From Gemmata palustris (GTDB lineage Bacteria > Planctomycetota > Planctomycetia > Gemmatales > Gemmataceae): a stretch of DNA of 64,000 bases. A model generated the notes under the pieces. The model saw only the letters and a list, made by a program, of their open reading frames with translations. It was not told the DNA's origin and ran no database searches. The translations under genes and the position numbers were made by a program. Positions 53,101-64,000 of the stretch are shown in pieces. Within the stretch, counting starts at the first letter, position 1. Every line of letters begins with the position of its first letter. Where the stretch lies: assembly GCF_017939745.1 (NCBI RefSeq), contig NZ_JAGKQQ010000001.1, positions 7,455,299 to 7,519,298 on the forward strand, given 5' to 3'.

Positions 53101-53119
53101 GTATTGCACAATGCAATAC
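53101..53119. promoter_or_regulatory. Palindromic operator of the toxin-antitoxin operon
   Basis: A perfect inverted repeat, gtattgca-caa-tgcaatac, 8-bp arms and a 3-bp spacer, 34 bp upstream of the antitoxin start. Its AT-rich sequence stands out from the GC-rich genome. By analogy with TacAT and AtaRT operons it is the likely site for autorepression by the antitoxin-toxin complex. I could not assign a promoter with confidence. Confidence 0.7.
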
Positions 53120-53256
53120 GGTACGGTCTCCGAAACGGCGTCGCGCAGTTCGGCTTGTCAACGGTCCCGGAATGGGTTCCAATCTCCATAATCTCTGAAT
53201 CCGCACGCATAGGAAAGCGCGCCCGGAATGACTCCGGGAGGGACGGAACCTTCACC

Positions 53257-56200
53257 ATGATGGCCCCGCTGCCGAATCCCGCACCCGGCGACCGGCCCGA
53301 CCTTCCCAAGGTCCGGCTCGACGCGCGCACGGGCACCGGGCGCGCGGTCAGTTACTACGAAATCGCCGGCGAAGAGTTCCTCATCGGCGGGGCCGCCGGG
53401 TGCGATCTGCGGTTGGCCGTCCCCGGCGCGCCGCCGGTCGTGGTGCAACTCACGCGTGGGCTCGACGGTGTCAGAATTCGGCGCGTCACCGCCGCAATGC
53501 CGGTGCTGCTCAACGGCGCACCGATTCCGGCCGGCACCACTTACGCACTTCAACACGCGGACACGATTCACGTCGCGGGCGTGGTGATCGCGGTTCAGAT
53601 TCCGACGCAAGCTGTTACCGAACCAGCAGCTACGTACCTCTCGCCGAAGTTCGCTTCGTTCGACGACGTGCCGCTCGCGTCCCCAATCGATGACGAACCC
53701 GAACCGTCCGCCCCCGACTTCACGGCCGAATACGAGCGCCTCGACGCGCGCAAACGGGCGCTCGACGCAGAAGAAGCCGACCGCCGGGCCGCGTGGGAGG
53801 CGCGCGACGCGGAACTCATCCGCCGGCGCCGCGACCTCGACCAATATGCCGAGGAACTCGAAGCGGACCGCGCGATCTGGCACGAGCGCCGGCGCGCGAT
53901 CGAACAGGAGCTCGCCGATCGTCGCGCGGAAGAAGCCGCGGCGCGAGAGGCCGAACTCACCCGCGCACGCGACGAACTCCTCGCGCTACGAACGCAGTGG
54001 ACGGACGAGTGCAGCAAACAGCGCGACGAACTGGCTCGCCAGGGCGAGGAGTTTCGGACCGAGCGCGACGCATTCGAGGCCGAACGCACGGCCTTTGAAC
54101 CCCAACGGCAGGCACTTCGTGACGAACAGGCCCGCACCGCAGCGCAGGTGCAGGAATTGTCGCGTCAGCGGGAGCTGTTTGCTGCGGATCGCGACATCTT
54201 CGAGCGGGCGAATGACACCTTTGAGGCCCGGCGCGCTGCGGAAACGGATCGTCTGACCTCGTGGGAAACCGATCTCAACGTGCGCGAGCAGGTGGTAACG
54301 CACCGCGAAGAACTGGTTCGCGCCGCACGCGACGAATTCGAGGTGGAACGCGCGCGCTTTCAGGACGATCTCGTCCGGCTCGAGCGCCGAATGGCCGCGG
54401 CGGAGGAGACCGATCGCGATCTGGCCGTTCGCACGCAGGAAGTGGACGCGCGGCTCGAGCAACTCCAGCGCGACGCGGCCGAGTGGGAGGAAACGGTCCG
54501 GCTCGCGGCGAGCGAACAGGAGCGCCTCCGGGCCGAGGCCGAACGGCTCGACCGCCAGAAGGCGGAACTCGATACACAAACCGCCGCACTCACCGAGCGC
54601 GGGGGGCAACTCGAAGCGCAACAGGCGGTGGTCGCAGTATTTCGCGCGAAACTTGATCGCAGCCGGCAGGACATGGAGCGCGAGGCGTGGCAACTCGCGG
54701 CCGCCCGCGCCCGCGAAGACGAGTCGATGGCCGAACTCCGCCGGCGCATTCAAGAAGCGGAAGAAGTTCGCGCCGCTCTCAACGCGGTCCAGGAGAACGC
54801 GGACCAGGAGCGCCAGCGCCTCGACGAGCGCGATTCGCTCCTGACGGCCGGGCTCGAGGAGATCCGCGTTCAGAAGGAAGCACTCGCGGTCGAAGCGAAG
54901 CGGATTCAGGAGCGCGAAGCGGAACTGGACACCCGATCGGCCGAGTTCGCGGAACAGGCCGGGATGCTCAAGGGCCGCATGACGCAGGCGGTCGATCTGC
55001 AGAGCCGGCTCGAAGCCGACCGCGTCGCGGTGCGCGAGCGCGAAGCCGCACTGTCGCAGTCCGAAGAGGCCCGGCAAGCACTTCAAGAGCAACTCCGCCG
55101 GCGCGCGGAAGACCTGAACACGCGCGGGAAGGCGATCGACGACCTGGCCCGCCAACTGGCCGCCGAGCGCGCGTCCGTGAACGAAGCCCGGGCCGCGCTC
55201 GAAGTATCGCGCCAGGCGGCCGAAGACGAACTCGCTTCGCGCCGGTTGGAGCTCGATGCCCGGACCGCGGGCGTGGAGCGCCAGGCGGTCGATTTTGCCG
55301 ATAAGGAGCTGGCCCTCGCACGACAGGTGGGGCGACTCAAAGATGTGGGCGCCGCGGTCGCCGCGGAGCGCAAGTCGCTGTCCGCCGCACGTGCGACGTG
55401 GGAGGCCGATCGCGCCGCAGCGATGCAAGCCGACCAAACCGCGCGCGAGCAGTTGGCGAACTTCCGCACGCAAGTCGAAGCGGACCTCGAAGCGTTGCGC
55501 GTGCAAGCCCCGGAACTCGACGATCAGGCGAAACTTGCCCTCGAACGGCTCGCCGGCGCGCGCGACATGCTCCGCGGGCACCTCAACGAACTGAACGAGT
55601 TCGCCCGCACGAGTCGCACCGATTTGGAAGCCGCCCGTGTTCAGATTCGCGAAGAATCCGAGCGCCTGCGCGAGAAGAACGAGGCCCTCGACCGCGCGAA
55701 GGACGAGCACCGGCTCGCGGTCACGGCGTTCCGGCAACAGTTGATCGAGTGGCAGGGCACCGTGGCCGAGATGCGGCGCCTCCTGAGTTCGAGCGAAACC
55801 CGGCTCGACGCGAAGCAAGCTGCCGCGACCGAAGCCGCGACTGCTGCCGCCGATGCGACGCAGAAGCTCGTGGAGGAAACCGACCGGCTCCGGCGCGAGC
55901 GCGAGGAGTTCACCGCGCGCCGGACGGAGATGGAGCGCCATCTCTCCGACATGCGCGAATGGTACCGGAAGAAGTTGCGGGAACTCGCTCGCGGGAACGC
56001 GGAACGCGGCACTCGTGGGGCGGAACTGGAGCCCGAGCCGACGCTCCCGCGCCTCGCGGATACGGGCGACGGCACACCGGTGGTTGCTTCTGGGGACGCC
56101 TTCCACAATTCGGGGGCAGTGCTCGAAGAACTGGAGCCGGGCGACCGGCAACTCGGCGAACTGCTGCGTTCATCGGGGTTGGTCGATCCCGACACGCTCA

Positions 56201-57141
56201 CGGCGTTGTGGGAAGACGCCACCCGACAGCGCCGCACGCTGCGCCAGGTGTTGCTCGCGAGTGGTGCCATCACGCTGTACCAACTCGCTCTCATCGAAGC
56301 GGGGACACTCGACGCCCTGATGCTCGGGCGGTTGAGAGTCATCGACCGGCTGCGCGTTTCGCAGAAAGAAGCGATTTACCGCGTTCACGACCCGAAGCGC
56401 ACGGGCGAGAAGTCCGGCGGGTTGTATCTCTTGCGACACCTCAGTGAAGCCGAGATGCAGGACGCCGTTCACCCGGACGAGTTCCGGCAGCGCTTCTCGG
56501 CCGCCCGCGACGCCGCCAGCCCGAACCTCGCGGGCGTCGTCGAAGTGCTGGAGATCAACGGTCGGCCCGCGGTACTCCAAGAGTGGCTGACGGGCTTGTT
56601 CAGCGCCGATTGGCCCGCGTTCGCCGCGCACCCGGGGTGCTGGGTCCGGCTCGCGACGATGGCCGCCAGCGCACTCGATGCGGCCCACCGCGTGGGGCTG
56701 GTTCACGGTCGACTGACATCCGATTCGTTCGTGCTCACGTCGGACGGTGTGCTGAAGGTGACCGGCTTCGGTGAGCCGTCGTGGTTGATCGGCCCGGCCG
56801 GTTCGGAAGCGAGCGAGGCCACGTCTGCGGCCGACTTGCGGGCGTTCGGGCAGGTCGCGTTCGGGTGGTCGCAGTTGGCCGGCAAGAAGCGCGTCGCGAA
56901 GACGAAGGGCTTCCCCGAATCGCTGTGGGGCGTGATCCGCCGACTGGAAGCGGACGCGGAACCACCGATGGCGGATACGGTTGCGGCCGCGCAGCCCTAT
57001 CAGTCCGCGGCGGAACTGCTCGCCGACCTTCAGCGCATCGCCCGCGACACACCCTTCAGCGACGACGCCTGGGAGAAGCTGCTGAAACACGTCGCGGACA
57101 ACGCCCCGGACGCCCCCGCGAGTCTGAAGAAGGCGGGGTAG
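53257..57141 (+). CDS. FHA / long coiled-coil / pseudokinase protein
   Basis: A 1294-residue soluble protein. Residues about 10-115 look like an FHA domain (YYEIAGEEFLIGGAAGCDLR, LLNGAPIPAGTTYALQHADT). Residues about 150-910 form an extremely long coiled coil rich in Ala, Arg and Glu. Residues about 1020-1265 resemble a protein kinase fold, but key residues are gone: HGR (1150-1152) replaces HRD, GFG (about 1170-1172) replaces DFG, and LLRHL has Arg where the ATP lysine should be. It is therefore a pseudokinase. It is probably a structural scaffold that binds phosphoproteins through the FHA domain. There is no membrane segment. Confidence 0.85.
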   Translation: MMAPLPNPAPGDRPDLPKVRLDARTGTGRAVSYYEIAGEEFLIGGAAGCDLRLAVPGAPPVVVQLTRGLDGVRIRRVTAAMPVLLNGAPIPAGTTYALQHADTIHVAGVVIAVQIPTQAVTEPAATYLSPKFASFDDVPLASPIDDEPEPSAPDFTAEYERLDARKRALDAEEADRRAAWEARDAELIRRRRDLDQYAEELEADRAIWHERRRAIEQELADRRAEEAAAREAELTRARDELLALRTQWTDECSKQRDELARQGEEFRTERDAFEAERTAFEPQRQALRDEQARTAAQVQELSRQRELFAADRDIFERANDTFEARRAAETDRLTSWETDLNVREQVVTHREELVRAARDEFEVERARFQDDLVRLERRMAAAEETDRDLAVRTQEVDARLEQLQRDAAEWEETVRLAASEQERLRAEAERLDRQKAELDTQTAALTERGGQLEAQQAVVAVFRAKLDRSRQDMEREAWQLAAARAREDESMAELRRRIQEAEEVRAALNAVQENADQERQRLDERDSLLTAGLEEIRVQKEALAVEAKRIQEREAELDTRSAEFAEQAGMLKGRMTQAVDLQSRLEADRVAVREREAALSQSEEARQALQEQLRRRAEDLNTRGKAIDDLARQLAAERASVNEARAALEVSRQAAEDELASRRLELDARTAGVERQAVDFADKELALARQVGRLKDVGAAVAAERKSLSAARATWEADRAAAMQADQTAREQLANFRTQVEADLEALRVQAPELDDQAKLALERLAGARDMLRGHLNELNEFARTSRTDLEAARVQIREESERLREKNEALDRAKDEHRLAVTAFRQQLIEWQGTVAEMRRLLSSSETRLDAKQAAATEAATAAADATQKLVEETDRLRREREEFTARRTEMERHLSDMREWYRKKLRELARGNAERGTRGAELEPEPTLPRLADTGDGTPVVASGDAFHNSGAVLEELEPGDRQLGELLRSSGLVDPDTLTALWEDATRQRRTLRQVLLASGAITLYQLALIEAGTLDALMLGRLRVIDRLRVSQKEAIYRVHDPKRTGEKSGGLYLLRHLSEAEMQDAVHPDEFRQRFSAARDAASPNLAGVVEVLEINGRPAVLQEWLTGLFSADWPAFAAHPGCWVRLATMAASALDAAHRVGLVHGRLTSDSFVLTSDGVLKVTGFGEPSWLIGPAGSEASEATSAADLRAFGQVAFGWSQLAGKKRVAKTKGFPESLWGVIRRLEADAEPPMADTVAAAQPYQSAAELLADLQRIARDTPFSDDAWEKLLKHVADNAPDAPASLKKAG

Positions 57142-57312: not shown

Positions 57313-58473
57313 TAGTGGAGAGTCATTCGGTTTGTTGTGAGGGGTCAGTTGGTTGCGAATAATGGTTCATGAAAGCACTGTTTCTTCGTGAGTTGACGGA
57401 ATCCGAGCGCGGGGCGCTCCGACAGGGCCTCCGCAGCCGGGAAGTTCTTACCCTCCGGCGCGCCCAGATCCTGCTGGCCAGCGCCGACCAACAAACCCCG
57501 TCCCAGATCTCGCGCCGGGTCGGCTGCGCCTCGCAAACCGTTCGCAACACGATCCATGCCTTCGAGAAGGAGGGGGCCGGCTGCTTGGCCGAGAAGAAGC
57601 GCGGACCCAAGGATGCCCAGCCGATCCTCGACGAGGCGAAGGCCGATCCGCTCAAGGGCATCCTCCACCAGTCCCCGCGCCGCTTCGGCAAGGCCCGGAG
57701 CACCTGGACCCTGGATCTGTTGGCCGAAGTCGCCTTCGAGCAGGAGTTGCCCCCGCGCCGGCTCTCCCACGAGGCCGTCCGGCAGGCGGTCAAGCGCCTG
57801 GGGCACGGGTGGAAGCGGGCCAAGCAGTGGATCACAAGTCCCGACCCCGCCTACGCGCGAAAAAAAAAAGCGCGCGACCGGCTGATCCGATTGGCGGCGT
57901 CGCACCCGGAGTGGGTGCTGGGGTACCAAGACGAGTGCTGGTGGAGCCGGTTGGCCCTCCCCGCGATGCACGCCTGGTCCGACGACCCGTTGCGGCTGGT
58001 CGAGCGCGAGGTGCCGAAGGGCGATACCGACCCGAAGGCGCTGTCGTGCTACGGGCTGTTGCGCGGGGACACGGGCCGGATGATGTTGCGGTTCGTGTCG
58101 GGCCGCCCGGTCTCGCAAGTGACGGAGGACTACTTGGGTTGGGTGTGCGAGCGGCTGAAGGCGGAGGGGAAGAAGGCGCTACTGTTGGTGTGGGACAACG
58201 CGGCGTGGCACGTCAGTAAGCGCGTGCGGGTGTGGATCAAGGGCCACAACCGGAAGGCTCGTGCGGAGGGCGGGGTTCGGATCGTGGCGTGCTTCCTGCC
58301 GGTGAAGAGCCCGTGGCTCAACCCCATCGAGCCCAAGTGGGCGCACGGCAAGAGGGCCATCGTCGAACCCGACCGCCTGCTGGCAGCAGTCGAGGTCCGA
58401 ACCCGCGTGTGCGACTACTACGGATGCGAGCACCTGGAGCCGCTCGCACAACTATCCGCCTGAAGCTGCACTA
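57313..58473 (+). mobile_element. IS630-family insertion sequence
   Basis: About 1.16 kb bounded by TA dinucleotides (57313-57314 and 58472-58473). The ends are imperfect inverted repeats: 57311-57330 (cctagtggagagtcattcgg) and 58456-58475 (complement cctagtgcagcttcaggcgg), 15 of 20 positions matching. TA target-site use is typical of the Tc1/mariner/IS630 group. The right inverted repeat overlaps the end of the transposase gene. The insertion splits an older transposase fragment. Confidence 0.8.
57369..58463 (+). CDS. IS630-family transposase
   Basis: A 364-residue DDE transposase. The N-terminal helix-turn-helix (SQISRRVGCASQTVRNTIHA) is followed by the catalytic residues D188 (YQDECWW), D276 (WDNAAWH) and E321 (NPIEPKW). 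The frame is intact from ATG to stop, so the element may still be active. A run of ten A residues (57860-57869, encoding RKKKA) is a potential slippage site, although no frameshift is needed here. Confidence 0.93.
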   Translation: MKALFLRELTESERGALRQGLRSREVLTLRRAQILLASADQQTPSQISRRVGCASQTVRNTIHAFEKEGAGCLAEKKRGPKDAQPILDEAKADPLKGILHQSPRRFGKARSTWTLDLLAEVAFEQELPPRRLSHEAVRQAVKRLGHGWKRAKQWITSPDPAYARKKKARDRLIRLAASHPEWVLGYQDECWWSRLALPAMHAWSDDPLRLVEREVPKGDTDPKALSCYGLLRGDTGRMMLRFVSGRPVSQVTEDYLGWVCERLKAEGKKALLLVWDNAAWHVSKRVRVWIKGHNRKARAEGGVRIVACFLPVKSPWLNPIEPKWAHGKRAIVEPDRLLAAVEVRTRVCDYYGCEHLEPLAQLSA

Positions 58474-59126: not shown

Positions 59127-59474
59127 GCTCACGTGACTGCACGAACGGCCCAGGTGCTTGCTTACGAGCGGAACAACGATGACACTTCAGGCCGTGAACG
59201 AGTATTCGCGTTGCTCCACCCCTGGCGGACTTCACGCACAAACTCCCGACGCGCCTCAACGCAAACCGAAGCGCCATGCCAAAAGCGTAACTCTGCCCGG
59301 CGACGTTCGCTAGAGCGTGTTGGCGAGTAGAACGCCCCATCACCGCCCCTGGCCACTCCTTTCCGCTTGCCGTTGCGCGGCGGGCGCCGATACCATGCGT
59401 TGGTGCCCTCTCTCAGTCTCTCGGCATTTCGCCAATCGGTTCGGGTTCGGGCGTCGTCTAATTGGTAGGAGGAT
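59127..59474. other. Intergenic gap upstream of the ECF sigma gene
   Basis: About 350 bp with no convincing gene. A sequence similar to the 5' half of a tRNA (59449-59472) is present but cannot be completed. The AGGAGG at 59467-59472 is the probable ribosome-binding site of the sigma gene, although only two bases from the ATG. No ECF-type autoregulated promoter was recognised with confidence. Confidence 0.45.
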
Positions 59475-60101
59475 ATGGCCAAATCCGGCGCGGCCCCGAT
59501 TTCGCGACCGATCGCGGGCACGGACCCCGCCCCGGACGCACCCCTTGTCGGCCCGCCCCCAACGGCGGACCGGCCCAGTGACGACACGCTCGTGGCCACC
59601 TTCAACCAGGTACGCGACGAACTCGTCAGCACCCTGCTGTACCTGCTCGGGAACGCCGACGACGCCCAGGACGCGGCCCAGGAAGCGTTCCTGAAGTGCT
59701 GGCGGGCGCGGAGCTCGGTGCCCGACGTGCAGAACCTGCGGGCCTGGATCTTCCGCGTGGGGCTGAACGCCGCCAAGGACTTCCAGCGCAGCGCCTGGAA
59801 CCGCAAGAGCCGCCCGCTCCCGGAGGACGACGTGATGCTCCCCACGCGGGACGATGCGCCGGGCCAAGTCGCCGAGGACCAGGAATCCCTCGACCGGCTC
59901 CGCCAGGCCATCGCCCAGTTGCGCCAGGACGAAAAGGAAGTGTTCCTGCTGCGGCAAAACGGCGATCTAACTTACGAGCAGATTGCCGAAATTCGGAGCG
60001 CCCCTGTGGGCACCGTGAAGACCCAAATGCGCACCGCCCTCATCAAACTCCGCAAGGTACTAAACCCGGCCGGGGCCACCGAGGAAGAGCCGTGTTCGTG
60101 A
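59475..60101 (+). CDS. ECF RNA polymerase sigma factor
   Basis: A 208-residue extracytoplasmic-function sigma factor. Region 2 includes LVSTLLYLLGNADDAQDAAQ EAFLKCWR (split here), the core-binding and -10-recognising helices. Region 4 includes LRQAIAQLRQDEKEVFLLRQ, LTYEQIAEIRSAPVGTVKTQ and MRTALIKLRKVL. A Pro-rich leader of about 35 residues precedes region 2. The TGA overlaps the next gene start (GTGA). The target regulon is unknown. The large zinc-finger receptor downstream is its probable partner. Confidence 0.93.
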   Translation: MAKSGAAPISRPIAGTDPAPDAPLVGPPPTADRPSDDTLVATFNQVRDELVSTLLYLLGNADDAQDAAQEAFLKCWRARSSVPDVQNLRAWIFRVGLNAAKDFQRSAWNRKSRPLPEDDVMLPTRDDAPGQVAEDQESLDRLRQAIAQLRQDEKEVFLLRQNGDLTYEQIAEIRSAPVGTVKTQMRTALIKLRKVLNPAGATEEEPCS

Positions 60102-60514
60102 ACATAACCCGGGTCGCTTTTGCGGCCTTCTTTGTTGCACTCTCCGCCGCACCCGGAGCCACCGCGCCCGTACCGGCCGAACGTGCTAAAGCTGAGAAGG
60201 AACAGGCGGTTCTGGCCGCGAAGTTACAGGGCGAATGGCGCGGTGGGCCGTGCGAAGGCCGGCTCGCGTTCCGGGCGGACGGGACATACGAGTGGAGGGA
60301 CGTCGGCCCTGTGGCGAACGTCAGCAGTGGAAAGTGGGCGATTCGTGGAGACGCGCGGGCGCCGGTTCTGGTTTGGAAATGCACGCAAGCCGACGACGAG
60401 GAGCTCGTTGGGAAGACGGTTGAGGTGCCGCTCGTGAGGGTGGACGAGGCGCTTCTCGTGTTCAAGTGCGCGGAGCTTCCTGAGCCGCGGCGCTTCGAGC
60501 GCCTCAAGAATTAG
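60098..60514 (+). CDS. Small exported protein in the ECF operon
   Basis: A 138-residue protein starting at GTG 60098 within a 4-base GTGA overlap with the sigma gene (GTG 60092 is an alternative). A signal peptide (NITRVAFAAFFVALSAAPGA) is followed by a small beta-rich domain: LQGEWRGGPCEGRLAFRADG, TYEWRDVGPVANVSSGKWAI, VLVWKCTQADDEELVGKTVE. The layout resembles small planctomycete lipocalin-like (TIGR03067-type) exported proteins. Two Cys could form a disulfide. It may be a ligand or modulator for the receptor encoded next. Confidence 0.75.
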   Translation: MNITRVAFAAFFVALSAAPGATAPVPAERAKAEKEQAVLAAKLQGEWRGGPCEGRLAFRADGTYEWRDVGPVANVSSGKWAIRGDARAPVLVWKCTQADDEELVGKTVEVPLVRVDEALLVFKCAELPEPRRFERLKN

Positions 60515-60720
60515 TGGCACCCGCCGAGCGAAATGGTTCGCGTGTTTTAAACGGATGGTTTTCAACGGGTATCAATAACGAGCTAAGGAGTGCGCTCGGA
60601 GGTCTGCCCCGGAGGGGCCAAAATGTTAGCCAAAGTTAGCCGCTGGCGGTCGGGGGAGCCCCGCCCCAGCGCGTGATAAGGACAAAACAGACCCGACCCG
60701 CCCGCCGGGACGAGACGACG

Positions 60721-63700
60721 ATGAACTGCGAACACTGCCAAACCCTGTTGCTCGATCACCTGTACGGTCTCCTCGAAGGGGCCGAAGCCGCGGGCGTCGA
60801 TGCGCACCTCGCGAACTGCCCCGCGTGCAGCGCCGCGCGTGCCGACACCGCGCGCGTTCAGGGGTTGTTCGCCCGCGCCGCGAAGTCCGCGTTCCCGAAC
60901 ACGAAGTTCGAGCCGCCTGTTCCAGCGCCGCAGAAATCGCACACGCACACCCCGGCGCTTGCCCCGTCAATCTCGGTCGCACTCCCGGCGAATTCCGGTA
61001 CTCGTAGCGGGCGCGTTTTGCGCCGCGTCGCGGTCGCGCTCCCGTGGGCGGTCGCCGCTGCGGTGCTGCTCGCGGTCCCGGGCACCGTCGTACCGGTTCT
61101 GAACATTTTCGACCGCGCCACTGTTGCCCAGCGCGGGGCCGAACTCGCCGGGCGCGATGCCGATGACGCACGTCTTGCATTTGCCAATGTGGAGCACGCC
61201 CGCGAGAGCCGGCTGAGTGACGCGCAGCTCAAACTCACGACCGCGGAGCAAGCTCAGACCGCGCTCCTCGACAGATGGGTGGACGAGCAGAAGGCCGCAG
61301 TGCAGACGGCCGCCACCCGCAAACTCACCATTGACATCCAGAAGCCCGCGACCGTTCAGCCCGGGGCGCCCAACGATTTCCTCCTCGTCGTGCGCGACGA
61401 GCGCGACGTGTGGGCCTCGCGCCGGAAGATGGTCGCCGAGGTGCGCAGCAGCGACGCGGTCCTCTTCACCCAGGATCTCGACCACGAGAAGAAGGGGAAC
61501 ACGCACGCGATCCGGTTGCCCGCGAGCGTGTGGACGAAGGTGAAACCGGACGACGAACTGACGCTCGTCGTCGCGCAGGTGGACGAGAAGACCAACGCCC
61601 GCACGCCGCTGCAAGAAGTGCGGCTCGCCGGCCCCGTGTTCACCACGCTGCTCGTCACCGACAAGCCGTCGTACCGGCCCGGCGAGCGGCTCTTCTTCCG
61701 CTCGCTCACGCTCGATCGCGTCACGCTCCGGCCCCCGCAGCGCGAACAGATGTTCCGTTACGACCTCGTCGCCGGGGTCGGCGCGCGCGGGCGCCCCGTT
61801 CCCGGCCTCACCGCGACGGGTAGCACCGAACTCGTGCGCGTGAGCGGCGACGCGAACGGCCGCGTTGAACCGGTGCGCACCGCCGCCGGACAGCCGGTTC
61901 GCGGGGTCGGGTGCGGTGAGTTCGTGCTGCCCGCGGACCTCGCGGACGGTGACTACACGCTCGTTCTCCACGAACTCTCTTCGCCCTCGGGCGGGTTCGC
62001 GCCGACGCTCCCGATGCCGGTCACGCGCGCCGTAAAGGTCCGGGCGGGCGCGGTGGAGCACTACGGCAAACTGATCGGGTTCGCAGGGAAATCCTTCTGC
62101 CCCGGTGACACCGTGGAAGCGTGGGCGGAATTGAGCTTTCAGGAGAAACCCGTCGCGGACGCGGAAGTGACCGCGGTCGCGGTCGAAGCCGACGGCGTTC
62201 CCCTTGAGGGAGTGCAGGTGGCGCCGCGGACCGATGCGCTGGGGCGCGCGAAGGTCCGGTTCGCGCTGCCGGAAGAGTTGGCGAACGGCGACGTGCGCCT
62301 GAAGGTCGCGTTCCGTGCCGGGGGTCACAACGAAATGGTCGCGGACCGCGTGCCCGTTGTCGGCCGGCGGCTCGTCGTCGAGTTCTTCCCGGAGTGCGGC
62401 GACACGATCGTCGCGGGCGTGCCGTGCAAGGTGTACGTTCGCGCCACCACGCCCGCCGGCCAACCGGTGGACATCAGCGGGATCATCACCGACGGCAAGG
62501 AAACGCTCGCGACCGTCAAAACGCTCCGCGACGAAGGGGCGCCCGGCGCCAACCGCGGGCTGGCCTCGTTCACCTTCACGCCGCAGGCCGGAACCCGCAC
62601 GTGGTTGAAGCTCGACGCGCCGAACACGATTTACGCGCCCATCGTGGACGGCCCGGTGCGCACGGCGTCGGTCGCACTCATGGGCGGTCCCGGTGCGGTT
62701 GCGGCTCGAACCGGGTTCATGCTCCCCGCCCCGCAACTCGAGGGCGTGGTGATGAGCGTACCGGACACCATCACGGCACCGGGGCAACCGATCCGCGTTC
62801 ACCTGCACTCGGTCGGGCAGCCGCGCACGCTCGTTGTCGGGGCGTACATCCGCGGGCGGCTCTGCGACACGCAGAAGGTGGTCGTCGAACCCGAGCAACT
62901 CGCGGAAGTAAAGCTGATGGCCGGCACCGACCCGTTCACCGGCGGGCGGGGCGGGGTGGTGCGCATTACCGCGTTCGAGGAAGTGGACGCCAAGGACGTG
63001 AAAAGTGGCGAAGCGAAGCCCGACCTGAAACCGGTGGCAGAACGCCTCGTGTTCCGGCGCCCCGGTGAATTCCTCAATCTGGCGCTCGGAATCACTTCCA
63101 GCACGCAGGCCGCGACTGCAGCGCCGGCCGCGCCGCAAGGGGTACAGAAGCGCGCGACTGCCGCGGACCCTGGAGTGAGTTGCACGATCGCCGCGACCGA
63201 CGAGAAGAACAACCCGGTGGCCGCGGTGCTGTGGGCCGCGGTGGTCAACACGGGCGTCGCCCCCGGTCCCCGGGACCGGACGATGCCGACGCACTTCCTC
63301 CTCGCGGGCGACGTGAAGAGCCCCGACGAACTGGAGTTCGCCGACTTCCTACTGACCGACCACAAGCACGCGGGCGAAGCGCTCGATCTCGTGCTCGGCA
63401 CGCAGGGCTGGCGCCGGTTCGCGGAACAGGCGCGCGTGCCGAGCAAGATGTACGCAGCGCGAAGCCCGGAACTGAACCGAATGATGGTGCAGAACGGTCA
63501 GTATCAGGTGTTCGCCGAACCGACCGCGGCGCGCGAGTTCCGCAAGATCGCCGAGACCTACGCCCCACTCTACGAGGTCGCGGTTCAAGCGGTCGCGCGG
63601 GCGCGGACCGGGCTAGACATCGCCCGCGAAGAAACGCGCGACACGCTCGCGATCCGCGAGGCGGAGCAGCGCTCACGAGTCGCGGCACAGGCCGCCGACG

Positions 63701-64000
63701 AAACGCGCGAGCGCGCCGAGGCCGCACGCGGACCGGTGCGCCAGTTCCGCTCGGCGGTGTGGTACGGGTTCGCCGGGTTCGCCGGGCTCGCTTTACTGTG
63801 CGGTGGGGTCGCGCTGGCCCGCCCACAGACGCGGTTCCCGCTCGGGGCGAGCACGATCGGTTCTTTCGGGTTGGCCGCGTTCCTCTTCGTCGCCGCCGGT
63901 TGGGGGGAAGAAGCACAAGCACGGGCACAGGAAGACGCGCCGCGCGAGGTCGCGCTGGGCCTCGAGTTCGCGTCTAAAGAAGTTGCGCCCGCACCCCAAC
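60721..64000 (+). CDS. Anti-sigma-like zinc-finger / A2M-like transmembrane protein, partial
   Basis: The frame is open from ATG 60721 to the window edge: 1093 residues, C-terminus missing. Residues 1-45 have a zinc-binding anti-sigma (ZAS) pattern: CEHC near the start and HLANCPAC (HxxxCxxC). One membrane segment lies at about 101-123 (VALPWAVAAAVLLAVPGTVV). Beyond it are large beta domains with the alpha-2-macroglobulin/MG2 signature LVTDKPSYRPGERLFFRSLT, ending in DLVLGTQGWRRF. Two further membrane segments lie at about 1011-1033 and 1045-1063. It is probably the anti-sigma receptor of the ECF factor, with a huge external sensor. Confidence 0.85.
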   Translation, partial: MNCEHCQTLLLDHLYGLLEGAEAAGVDAHLANCPACSAARADTARVQGLFARAAKSAFPNTKFEPPVPAPQKSHTHTPALAPSISVALPANSGTRSGRVLRRVAVALPWAVAAAVLLAVPGTVVPVLNIFDRATVAQRGAELAGRDADDARLAFANVEHARESRLSDAQLKLTTAEQAQTALLDRWVDEQKAAVQTAATRKLTIDIQKPATVQPGAPNDFLLVVRDERDVWASRRKMVAEVRSSDAVLFTQDLDHEKKGNTHAIRLPASVWTKVKPDDELTLVVAQVDEKTNARTPLQEVRLAGPVFTTLLVTDKPSYRPGERLFFRSLTLDRVTLRPPQREQMFRYDLVAGVGARGRPVPGLTATGSTELVRVSGDANGRVEPVRTAAGQPVRGVGCGEFVLPADLADGDYTLVLHELSSPSGGFAPTLPMPVTRAVKVRAGAVEHYGKLIGFAGKSFCPGDTVEAWAELSFQEKPVADAEVTAVAVEADGVPLEGVQVAPRTDALGRAKVRFALPEELANGDVRLKVAFRAGGHNEMVADRVPVVGRRLVVEFFPECGDTIVAGVPCKVYVRATTPAGQPVDISGIITDGKETLATVKTLRDEGAPGANRGLASFTFTPQAGTRTWLKLDAPNTIYAPIVDGPVRTASVALMGGPGAVAARTGFMLPAPQLEGVVMSVPDTITAPGQPIRVHLHSVGQPRTLVVGAYIRGRLCDTQKVVVEPEQLAEVKLMAGTDPFTGGRGGVVRITAFEEVDAKDVKSGEAKPDLKPVAERLVFRRPGEFLNLALGITSSTQAATAAPAAPQGVQKRATAADPGVSCTIAATDEKNNPVAAVLWAAVVNTGVAPGPRDRTMPTHFLLAGDVKSPDELEFADFLLTDHKHAGEALDLVLGTQGWRRFAEQARVPSKMYAARSPELNRMMVQNGQYQVFAEPTAAREFRKIAETYAPLYEVAVQAVARARTGLDIAREETRDTLAIREAEQRSRVAAQAADETRERAEAARGPVRQFRSAVWYGFAGFAGLALLCGGVALARPQTRFPLGASTIGSFGLAAFLFVAAGWGEEAQARAQEDAPREVALGLEFASKEVAPAPQ

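What the first reader, a model, noticed from the sequence alone, without database searches (positions are those of the whole stretch)
59475..64000. ECF sigma factor coupled to a giant zinc-finger/A2M-like receptor
Three tightly arranged genes: an ECF sigma factor, a small exported protein starting inside a GTGA overlap, and a protein that joins an anti-sigma zinc finger, one membrane helix and at least 880 external residues with alpha-2-macroglobulin-type motifs, followed by two more membrane helices. A normal anti-sigma factor has about 200-250 residues. An A2M-like sensor directly wired to an anti-sigma domain would let the cell sense proteases or envelope damage and switch transcription. 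I know of planctomycete anti-sigma fusions, but this combination with the intervening exported protein is unusual.
Basis: partly seen in the sequence, partly recalled or inferred. Interest (0 to 1): 0.78.

Follow-up and report, generated by a model that had tools for sequence, protein, structure and literature searches.

The report
Complement-like receptor controlling a sigma factor
This bacterium encodes a very large membrane protein whose outer part is built like animal complement and alpha-2-macroglobulin and whose inner tip looks like the switch of a neighbouring gene-control (sigma) factor, so it probably turns events outside the cell into gene expression.

Summary
An ECF sigma gene (59475-60101) is followed by a giant gene (ATG 60721) that runs past the window edge, 1437 residues in full. 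Residues 3-36 are a zinc anti-sigma domain. A membrane helix continues into a helical stalk, then macroglobulin (MG) domains matching complement C3/C4/C5, CD109 and A2M, two more membrane helices, a disordered linker and a last MG7 domain.

31 of 50 type-1 loci with the gene end held carry a thioester (TED) domain; the window's clade lacks it, as do a few other lineages. One branch changed anti-sigma domain and sigma class together while keeping the A2M body.

A fixed promoter-like motif (CAATC-N17-CGTC) precedes 49 of 68 distinct sigma upstreams, suggesting autoregulation.

The small exported protein is a local insert, not core. The signal is inferred: I favour envelope or protease perturbation relayed through the stalk. 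My searches of the open-licence library found no paper on such a fusion.

The parts
59433..59458 (+). Predicted ECF-type promoter CAATC-N17-CGTC, 16 bases before the sigma start codon (candidate autoregulation)
   Evidence: Same bipartite motif at exactly this spacing in 49 of 68 distinct sigma upstreams; other spacings from 5 to 40 give 0-4, except 12 at N14, which I attribute to the repeated CGTCGTC in Gemmata; spacer columns weakly conserved over 47 sites
59475..60101 (+). ECF sigma factor, 208 aa (regions 2 and 4)
   Evidence: Pfam PF04542, PF08281 and NCBIfam TIGR02937 above cut-offs
60092..60514 (+). Small exported protein, about 140 aa; local insert, not core to the system
   Evidence: Overlaps the sigma stop by 10 bases; no Pfam or NCBIfam hit; at this place in G000, G010, G009 and G019 only, 4 of 62 family loci
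60721..64000 (+). Giant anti-sigma/macroglobulin-like receptor, residues 1-1093 of 1437; the rest lies beyond the window
   Evidence: Complete reading frame in the genome
60721..60885 (+). Class I zinc anti-sigma domain, residues 1-55 (C3, H29-x3-C33-x2-C36)
   Evidence: zf-HC2; ligands invariant in 41 aligned rows, chosen as zinc type; profile matches 3hug_B (RslA, name recalled), RsiW, RsrA; three helices, mean pLDDT 89-97 per ten residues up to residue 50
61027..61083 (+). Membrane helix 1 (residues 103-121)
   Evidence: Hydropathy; Arg-rich on the N-terminal side, so N-terminus inside (inference)
61039..61317 (+). One continuous predicted helix (residues 107-199): membrane helix 1 plus outer stalk
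   Evidence: AlphaFold2 model
61324..63198 (+). Macroglobulin-domain array (residues 202-826), complement C3 beta-chain-like
   Evidence: Foldseek best 9.3e-23, VIA Z about 12, profile hits to TEP1, A2M, C3-C5 and CD109
63763..63897 (+). Membrane hairpin (residues 1015-1033 and 1041-1059) lying between the MG block and MG7, where A2Ms carry the bait region
   Evidence: Hydropathy; at least two hydrophobic segments there in 73 of 75 ORFs; equivalence with the bait region is inference

Best explanation
The locus encodes a one-protein transmembrane switch for an ECF sigma factor. Residues 1-55 are a class I zinc anti-sigma domain that holds the sigma factor at the inner face of the membrane (identity from profile and predicted fold; binding inferred). 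A continuous helix crosses the membrane and rises as a stalk to a macroglobulin ring outside that resembles the complement C3 beta chain; the chain returns to the membrane at the place where A2Ms carry the bait region, goes in and out as a hairpin, and ends outside in a disordered linker and MG7 (fold predicted; orientation inferred). A change in the ring or cleavage of the exposed linker, most likely by a protease or other envelope disturbance, is relayed through the stalk, or followed by proteolysis of the stalk, and frees the sigma factor (inferred). The freed sigma factor then raises its own operon from a CAATC-N17-CGTC promoter (motif shown, activity inferred) and perhaps some genes for exported proteins (weak evidence). 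In thioester-bearing relatives the same protein could also trap the protease; in the window's clade that part is missing and a sensor remains.
For: N1/SW are the window-type anti-sigma domain and sigma, N2/SP those of the paralogue. Anti-sigma domain: profile hits to 3hug_B (RslA, 4.6e-6), RsiW (5.9e-5) and RsrA (3.5e-4); invariant C3/H29/C33/C36 in 41 zinc-type rows. Outer part. Gene pairing: of 80 loci, 71 have more than 700 bases held upstream: N1 with SW 56, N2 with SP 5, neither domain nor sigma 8, N1 without sigma 1 (L150), sigma with a domain the model missed 1 (L181). In the Pirellulales-like group, which was not used to build the models, all 11 loci with the 5' side held have the sigma gene. 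Partner swap: N1 and N2 are unrelated by profile comparison (0.2% probability), each with its own sigma class, yet the N2 branch is nested inside the N1 tree of MG bodies. Sigma and N-domain distances correlate at 0.72 over 58 pairs, maximum of 1000 permutations 0.32. Promoter. In a relative, MG7 is modelled at pLDDT up to 93 beyond a linker at about 30.
Against: No experiment; sigma binding and topology untested. The window protein has no TED or thioester, so nothing shows that it still meets proteases. Relatives without an anti-sigma domain and without sigma exist (8 of 71 loci), so the A2M body has work other than sensing. Genome-wide the motif is no commoner at the right spacing than at others (16 sites against about 14 per other spacing), so the regulon beyond autoregulation is weak. 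19 of 68 upstreams lack the exact motif, 9 of them in the Pirellulales-like group. The sigma-MG distance correlation (0.67) is nearly as high as sigma-N, so common descent explains much of it. Single-sequence searches are weak.
Confidence: 0.6

Rival explanations
1. Homeostatic controller: the A2M-like body is itself the working product (a structural or protective envelope protein), and the fused anti-sigma domain only tunes its own production; no outside signal is sensed.
For: The promoter motif lies on the operon itself, extra targets are poorly supported, and A2M bodies without anti-sigma domain or sigma exist.
Against: A one-polypeptide wiring through a membrane helix, kept across Gemmataceae and a Pirellulales-like group, is costly for mere feedback; in several lineages the thioester domain is missing while the anti-sigma domain is kept.
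Confidence: 0.2
2. Ligand or peptidoglycan/mechanical sensor: the MG ring binds a cell-envelope ligand or another exported protein, and proteases are not involved.
For: No thioester in the window's clade; a TIGR03000 exported protein is encoded directly downstream in 14 of the 15 window-clade loci with the 3' side held and could be a partner.
Against: 31 of 50 type-1 loci with the gene end held keep TED, and 38 of 40 TED carriers among the family loci keep the GCxEQ motif of protease-trapping A2Ms, arguing for a protease-related ancestor.
Confidence: 0.25
3. The TED-less window protein is a decaying remnant of a full receptor and no longer signals.
For: It lacks about 620-670 residues found in complete relatives, and the genome's only TED match is in the paralogue.
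Against: The short form is kept in a 21-row clade with SH-aLRT 100 (two of the rows have no held 3' end), with sigma gene, zinc ligands and promoter, and TED-less forms of separate lineages end 0-39 residues after MG7, which looks like a selected end point.
Confidence: 0.07

Closest known systems
Class I (ASDI/ZAS) ECF anti-sigma factors such as RsiW, RslA, RsrA, ChrR
   Same: Zinc Hx3Cx2C domain, predicted helical, encoded after an ECF sigma gene, followed by a membrane helix
Bacterial type I alpha-2-macroglobulins (ECAM/YfhM, Salmonella A2M)
   Same: MG array and, in the paralogue and many relatives, TED with GCFEQ
   Different: Membrane-anchored at two points and joined to an anti-sigma domain; the window protein has no TED
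Type II bacterial A2M (MagD of Pseudomonas aeruginosa; PMC5764988, passages read)
   Same: No CXEQ thioester motif yet an MG-type body
   Different: Encoded in a six-gene mag operon; no anti-sigma domain in the passages read; the window protein lacks the whole TED region
Animal complement C3/C4/C5, CD109, TEP1
   Same: Predicted MG array superposes (Z about 12)
   Different: Extracellular effectors (recalled); no link to transcription known to me

Membership tests
ECF sigma factor | Sigma-70 regions 2 and 4 only | tested here: met
   PF04542 and PF08281 above cut-off; TIGR02937 82.7 bits against 42.9
Class I zinc anti-sigma factor (ZAS) | Hx3Cx2C with an upstream Cys | tested here: met
   C3, H29, C33, C36 invariant in 41 rows chosen as zinc type; zf-HC2 above cut-off. 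Distant relatives lack the ligands
Class I zinc anti-sigma factor (ZAS) | Sequence profile relates to solved anti-sigma domains | tested here: met
   3hug_B (RslA, name recalled) 4.6e-6, RsiW 5.9e-5, RsrA 3.5e-4; single-sequence NCBIfam anti-sigma models stay below cut-off
Class I zinc anti-sigma factor (ZAS) | Helical anti-sigma fold | tested here: inconclusive
   Predicted helices 3-14, 20-32, 34-55 at high pLDDT fit, but this part was not compared with solved folds on its own (one search tested residues 209-919)
Class I zinc anti-sigma factor (ZAS) | Encoded with its sigma factor | tested here: met
   56 of 57 N1 loci with the 5' side held
Class I zinc anti-sigma factor (ZAS) | Binds and inhibits the sigma factor | not testable with these tools
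   Needs two-hybrid or in vitro assay
Alpha-2-macroglobulin/complement superfamily | Array of MG domains | tested here: met
   Family profile, Foldseek and VIA; single-sequence MG2 below cut-off
Thioester A2M (type I) | TED domain with CxEQ | tested here: not met
   None in the window protein; the genome's only TED match is in the paralogue
Alpha-2-macroglobulin | Cleavable bait region | tested here: inconclusive
   A disordered linker lies between MG block and MG7 in a relative's model; cleavage cannot be tested
Type II A2M (MagD) | mag operon partners | not tested
   Not searched

The most novel reading that the evidence does not exclude
Planctomycetes turned a complement-like protease trap into a transcription receptor: the bait-region site became a membrane hairpin plus exposed linker, cleavage there collapses the MG ring and releases an ECF sigma factor, and the trap (TED) was then discarded more than once, leaving a pure protease sensor. 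The same body was rewired once to a second, unrelated anti-sigma/sigma pair.
Probability: 0.3. Interest if true: 0.9.

Novelty: new variant of a known kind. Interest (0 to 1): 0.72.

Why it matters
Bacterial A2Ms are thought of as periplasmic protease traps. A widespread family in which the same fold is joined through the membrane to a sigma-factor inhibitor would give complement-like proteins a signalling role, offer a testable input (proteases, envelope damage) for planctomycete ECF systems of unknown signal, and show how a sensor body can be moved between two unrelated anti-sigma/sigma pairs.

Tried and rejected
Small exported protein as a core member: rejected; at this place in 4 of 62 family loci, matches in 11 of 95 genomes, several at unrelated places. 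No family was found for it and its fold was not predicted.

Genome-wide regulon: seemed to show enrichment (own genome 16 sites against 2; G010 16 against 2; G009 19 against 0), but the control there, the pattern read backwards, is unfair in composition. With other spacings as control there is no excess (98 rows over seven spacings). Sites followed by a Shine-Dalgarno-like sequence plus ATG frame of at least 70 aa: 7 of 16 against 6 of 40 control-spacing sites, p 0.028; without the sigma gene itself 6 of 15, p 0.055 (40 of about 84 control sites were fetched, in map order). Relatives keep the site in front of an exported 195-aa protein, an exported 133-137-aa protein, a 477-aa protein and a DUF4175 membrane protein (G009-G011, not every site's locus was fetched; exported judged by eye). 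One of the 7 (L194) is probably spurious, its site lying inside long frames of both strands. Kept only as a lead.

N2 as a diverged N1: profile comparison gives no relation (0.2%, against zinc-free N1: 2.2%), and no PDB hit. That N2 is an anti-sigma domain is inferred from its place and its sigma gene. A search with N2 found no other copy in the genome.

TED loss compensated by another TED gene: not always. G021, G023, G072, G073, G087 and G092 have TED-less genes and no TED match in the genome; most are draft assemblies.

Circularity: the N1, N2, SW, SP, MG, G7 and TED models were built from the family loci and many loci are the same contigs; the Pirellulales-like group was not in the training set, and there the N1 hits are weak (about 1e-3 to 1e-7).

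Tree cautions: quick LG+G4 tree of 85 rows; long branches L170 and L168 join; fewest TED changes 5, a count that cannot tell gain from loss. I read them as losses because TED is present in the outer groups and the short forms share their end point.

Phylum-wide frequency: one single-protein search worked (36 of 246 genomes at E 1e-10; most listed matches lack the N-terminal part), so I give no phylum-wide rate for the fusion.

Second model: pTM 0.68 but no inter-domain error was available, so I do not claim that MG7 docks in the ring. Foldseek on it lists the same C3/C4/C5/TEP1/CD109/A2M family.

Papers: no hits for macroglobulin with planctomycet and anti-sigma, bacterial alpha-2-macroglobulin with ECF sigma (25), macroglobulin with planctomycet and sigma factor (36), alpha-2-macroglobulin with anti-sigma factor (113). 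Unrelated by their titles: 4 for macroglobulin with Gemmata (45) and 2 with Rhodopirellula (46). Of 12 for macroglobulin with planctomycet (114) I read passages of PMC12485934 only (another cage protein). Of 10 on ECF sigma factors, planctomycetes and anti-sigma (37) I read passages of PMC7406223, PMC8103513 and PMC8999054; none of the three holds the word macroglobulin. One search listed 15 of 822 papers, of which I read passages of PMC5764988. Not held: the 2021 ECF reclassification, Jogler 2012, Wiegand 2020, Budd 2004, so the fusion may already be listed there.

Full report
What is there. The window lies in a 9.23-Mb genome of three contigs. The sigma gene (59475-60101), a small exported protein (60092-60514) and a giant gene (ATG 60721) follow one another. 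The giant gene is complete in the genome at 1437 residues. Sigma regions 2 and 4 are above Pfam cut-offs; the giant protein has zf-HC2 above cut-off and MG2 below it. Below, N1 and SW stand for the window-type anti-sigma domain and sigma, N2 and SP for those of the paralogue.

Anti-sigma end. A profile of 41 zinc-type N-termini finds, in the PDB, 3hug_B (deposited as a probable membrane protein; RslA is recalled) at 4.6e-6, RsiW 5.9e-5, RsrA 3.5e-4, DdvA 2.6e-3 and weakly ChrR 0.8. C3, H29, C33 and C36 are invariant in those rows. More distant relatives (Zavarzinella, the Pirellulales-like group) lack the ligands but keep the domain (profile comparison 99.0%, 6e-18, with rows found by the same model). 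Mixed zinc and zinc-free class I anti-sigma factors are known (PMC7406223, passages read).

Outer part. AlphaFold2 on residues 1-1093 with 58 relatives gives mean pLDDT 81.6, pTM 0.68: three N-terminal helices, one helix 107-199 that combines membrane helix and stalk, beta domains 202-826, helices 935-1072. The 50 best Foldseek matches shown are C3, C4, C5 or cobra venom factor entries (best 9.3e-23; 374 matches at or below 0.001). The VIA second look puts CD109, C3, C5 and E. coli A2M at Z about 12 (model residues 209-919 tested). A 59-row profile hits TEP1 (2.5e-11), A2M, C3, C4, C5, CD109 and, weakly, E. coli YfhM (1.8e-3).

The paralogue. The same genome has a related gene at about C1:1285.5-1291.2 kb, 35% identical over 926 aligned columns, with MG2, A2M and TED domains and the GCFEQ motif. 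It follows an overlapping sigma gene of NCBIfam TIGR02989 and starts with a different domain (N2). The window protein stops in the A2M/MG7 domain and has no TED.

Distribution. 93 of 95 genomes of the family have a match to the giant protein. I fetched 60 of those loci besides the two own ones; all 62 have their 5' side held: N1 with SW 46, N2 with SP 10, neither 6. A named collection gave 298 relatives, of which the best 80 were kept, including Gemmata sp. IIL30, Limnoglobus roseus, Zavarzinella formosa, Rhodopirellula maiorica and strains TBK1r, SV_7m_r and CA13. With more than 700 bases upstream held (71 of 80): N1 with SW 56, N2 with SP 5, neither 8, N1 without sigma 1 (L150), sigma with a domain missed by the model 1 (L181; a similar stretch is visible by eye). 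The two sets overlap, many loci being the same contigs, and the models came from the first set; but in the Pirellulales-like group, outside it, 11 of 11 loci with the 5' side held have the sigma gene. TED is present in 31 and absent in 19 of the 50 N1 loci whose gene end is held.

Evolution. In a tree of MG regions (85 rows) the window's TED-less clade (21 rows, two without a held 3' end) has SH-aLRT 100, and the fewest changes of TED state are 5. The 19 TED-less loci with the gene end held stop 0-39 residues after MG7 (18; L111, split into two frames, by its MG7 frame), against 622-669 further residues in complete TED forms. The N2 and no-domain types form one group of 17 rows (SH-aLRT 100) nested among N1 types, so the A2M body changed its anti-sigma domain and its sigma class together. 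38 of 40 TED carriers in the family loci keep GCxEQ; L099 and L100 do not.

Topology. Of 75 ORFs with both MG block and MG7, 64 have a hydrophobic segment before the MG block and 73 at least two between MG block and MG7; the linker after them has a median of 202 residues. In a model of a close relative (L102) most of the linker is at pLDDT about 30 and MG7 reaches 93. A2M_BRD is above cut-off within the MG block of TBK1r. That the hairpin sits where A2Ms have the bait region is my inference from domain order.

Promoter. CAATC-N17-CGTC occurs in 49 of 68 distinct upstreams of SW sigma genes; every other spacing from 5 to 40 gives 0-4, except N14 with 12, which I attribute to the repeated CGTCGTC in Gemmata. 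On an overlapping set of 71 upstreams, CAAT-N13..19-CGTC was found in 52, in mononucleotide shuffles in 2.4 on average and at most 8. SP sigma genes carry another fixed motif, TTCCAAT-N12/13-GTCAAC, in 9 of 10 distinct upstreams. These look like ECF -35/-10 pairs (recalled), so both systems are probably autoregulated. Evidence for further targets is weak.

Neighbours. A TIGR03000 exported protein follows the giant gene in 14 of 20 TED-less N1 loci with the 3' side held, and in 1 of 26 N1 loci with TED. Five of the six misses are other TED-less lineages; the sixth, L111, has a hit overlapping its split frame. It is a better candidate partner in the window's clade than the small intervening protein.

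Mechanism. Canonical membrane anti-sigma factors hold the sigma factor and release it, normally through regulated intramembrane proteolysis (PMC8999054, passages read). Bacterial A2Ms are cut in a bait region; MagD traps a protease even without a thioester (PMC5764988, passages read). Joining these, I infer that ring rearrangement or linker cleavage outside is passed through the stalk helix to the anti-sigma domain. Shown: domains, gene pairing, promoter motif, evolution. Inferred: sigma binding, orientation, signal, release.

Novelty. ECF/anti-sigma pairs with varied outer domains are a known kind; a complement/A2M-type outer domain did not turn up in my searches of the open-licence library, but the main ECF catalogues were not readable here.

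Noticed in passing
L010:10211-10993 (-) and about L010:4461-10214 (-): Second, TED-bearing A2M receptor of the same genome with a different N-terminal domain, a TIGR02989 sigma gene overlapping its start, and its own promoter motif TTCCAAT-N13-GTCAAC.
   Followed up: yes
L085, L086, L088, L091, L093, L096 (and L136-L138, L140, L142-L144, L154): A2M proteins of the paralogue's branch with TED but no recognised anti-sigma domain and no sigma gene found upstream: the body uncoupled from transcription.
   Followed up: partly
L009:11406-12224 (beyond the right edge): TIGR03000 exported Gly/Tyr-rich protein directly downstream, conserved in the window's clade; possible partner.
   Followed up: partly
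L010:1027-3813 (-): A 928-aa protein that begins like an ECF sigma factor and goes on with a hydrophobic segment and long, apparently repeated C-terminal domains; similar sigma-like frames lie near the paralogue in L082 and L083.
   Followed up: no
window 57369-58463: IS630-family transposase (NCBIfam 147 bits against cut-off 100) upstream of the operon.
   Followed up: no
window 53104-57141: 1345-aa protein with a long coiled coil that by eye starts like an FHA domain and ends like a kinase-related domain; not searched.
   Followed up: no
L188, L190, L193, L195, L198, L244: Genome sites with the promoter motif in front of exported or membrane proteins (one with DUF4175); conserved in relatives for four of them; candidate regulon, weak statistics.
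   Followed up: partly
L099, L100: TED-bearing relatives without the GCxEQ motif: possible thioester-free forms.
   Followed up: no
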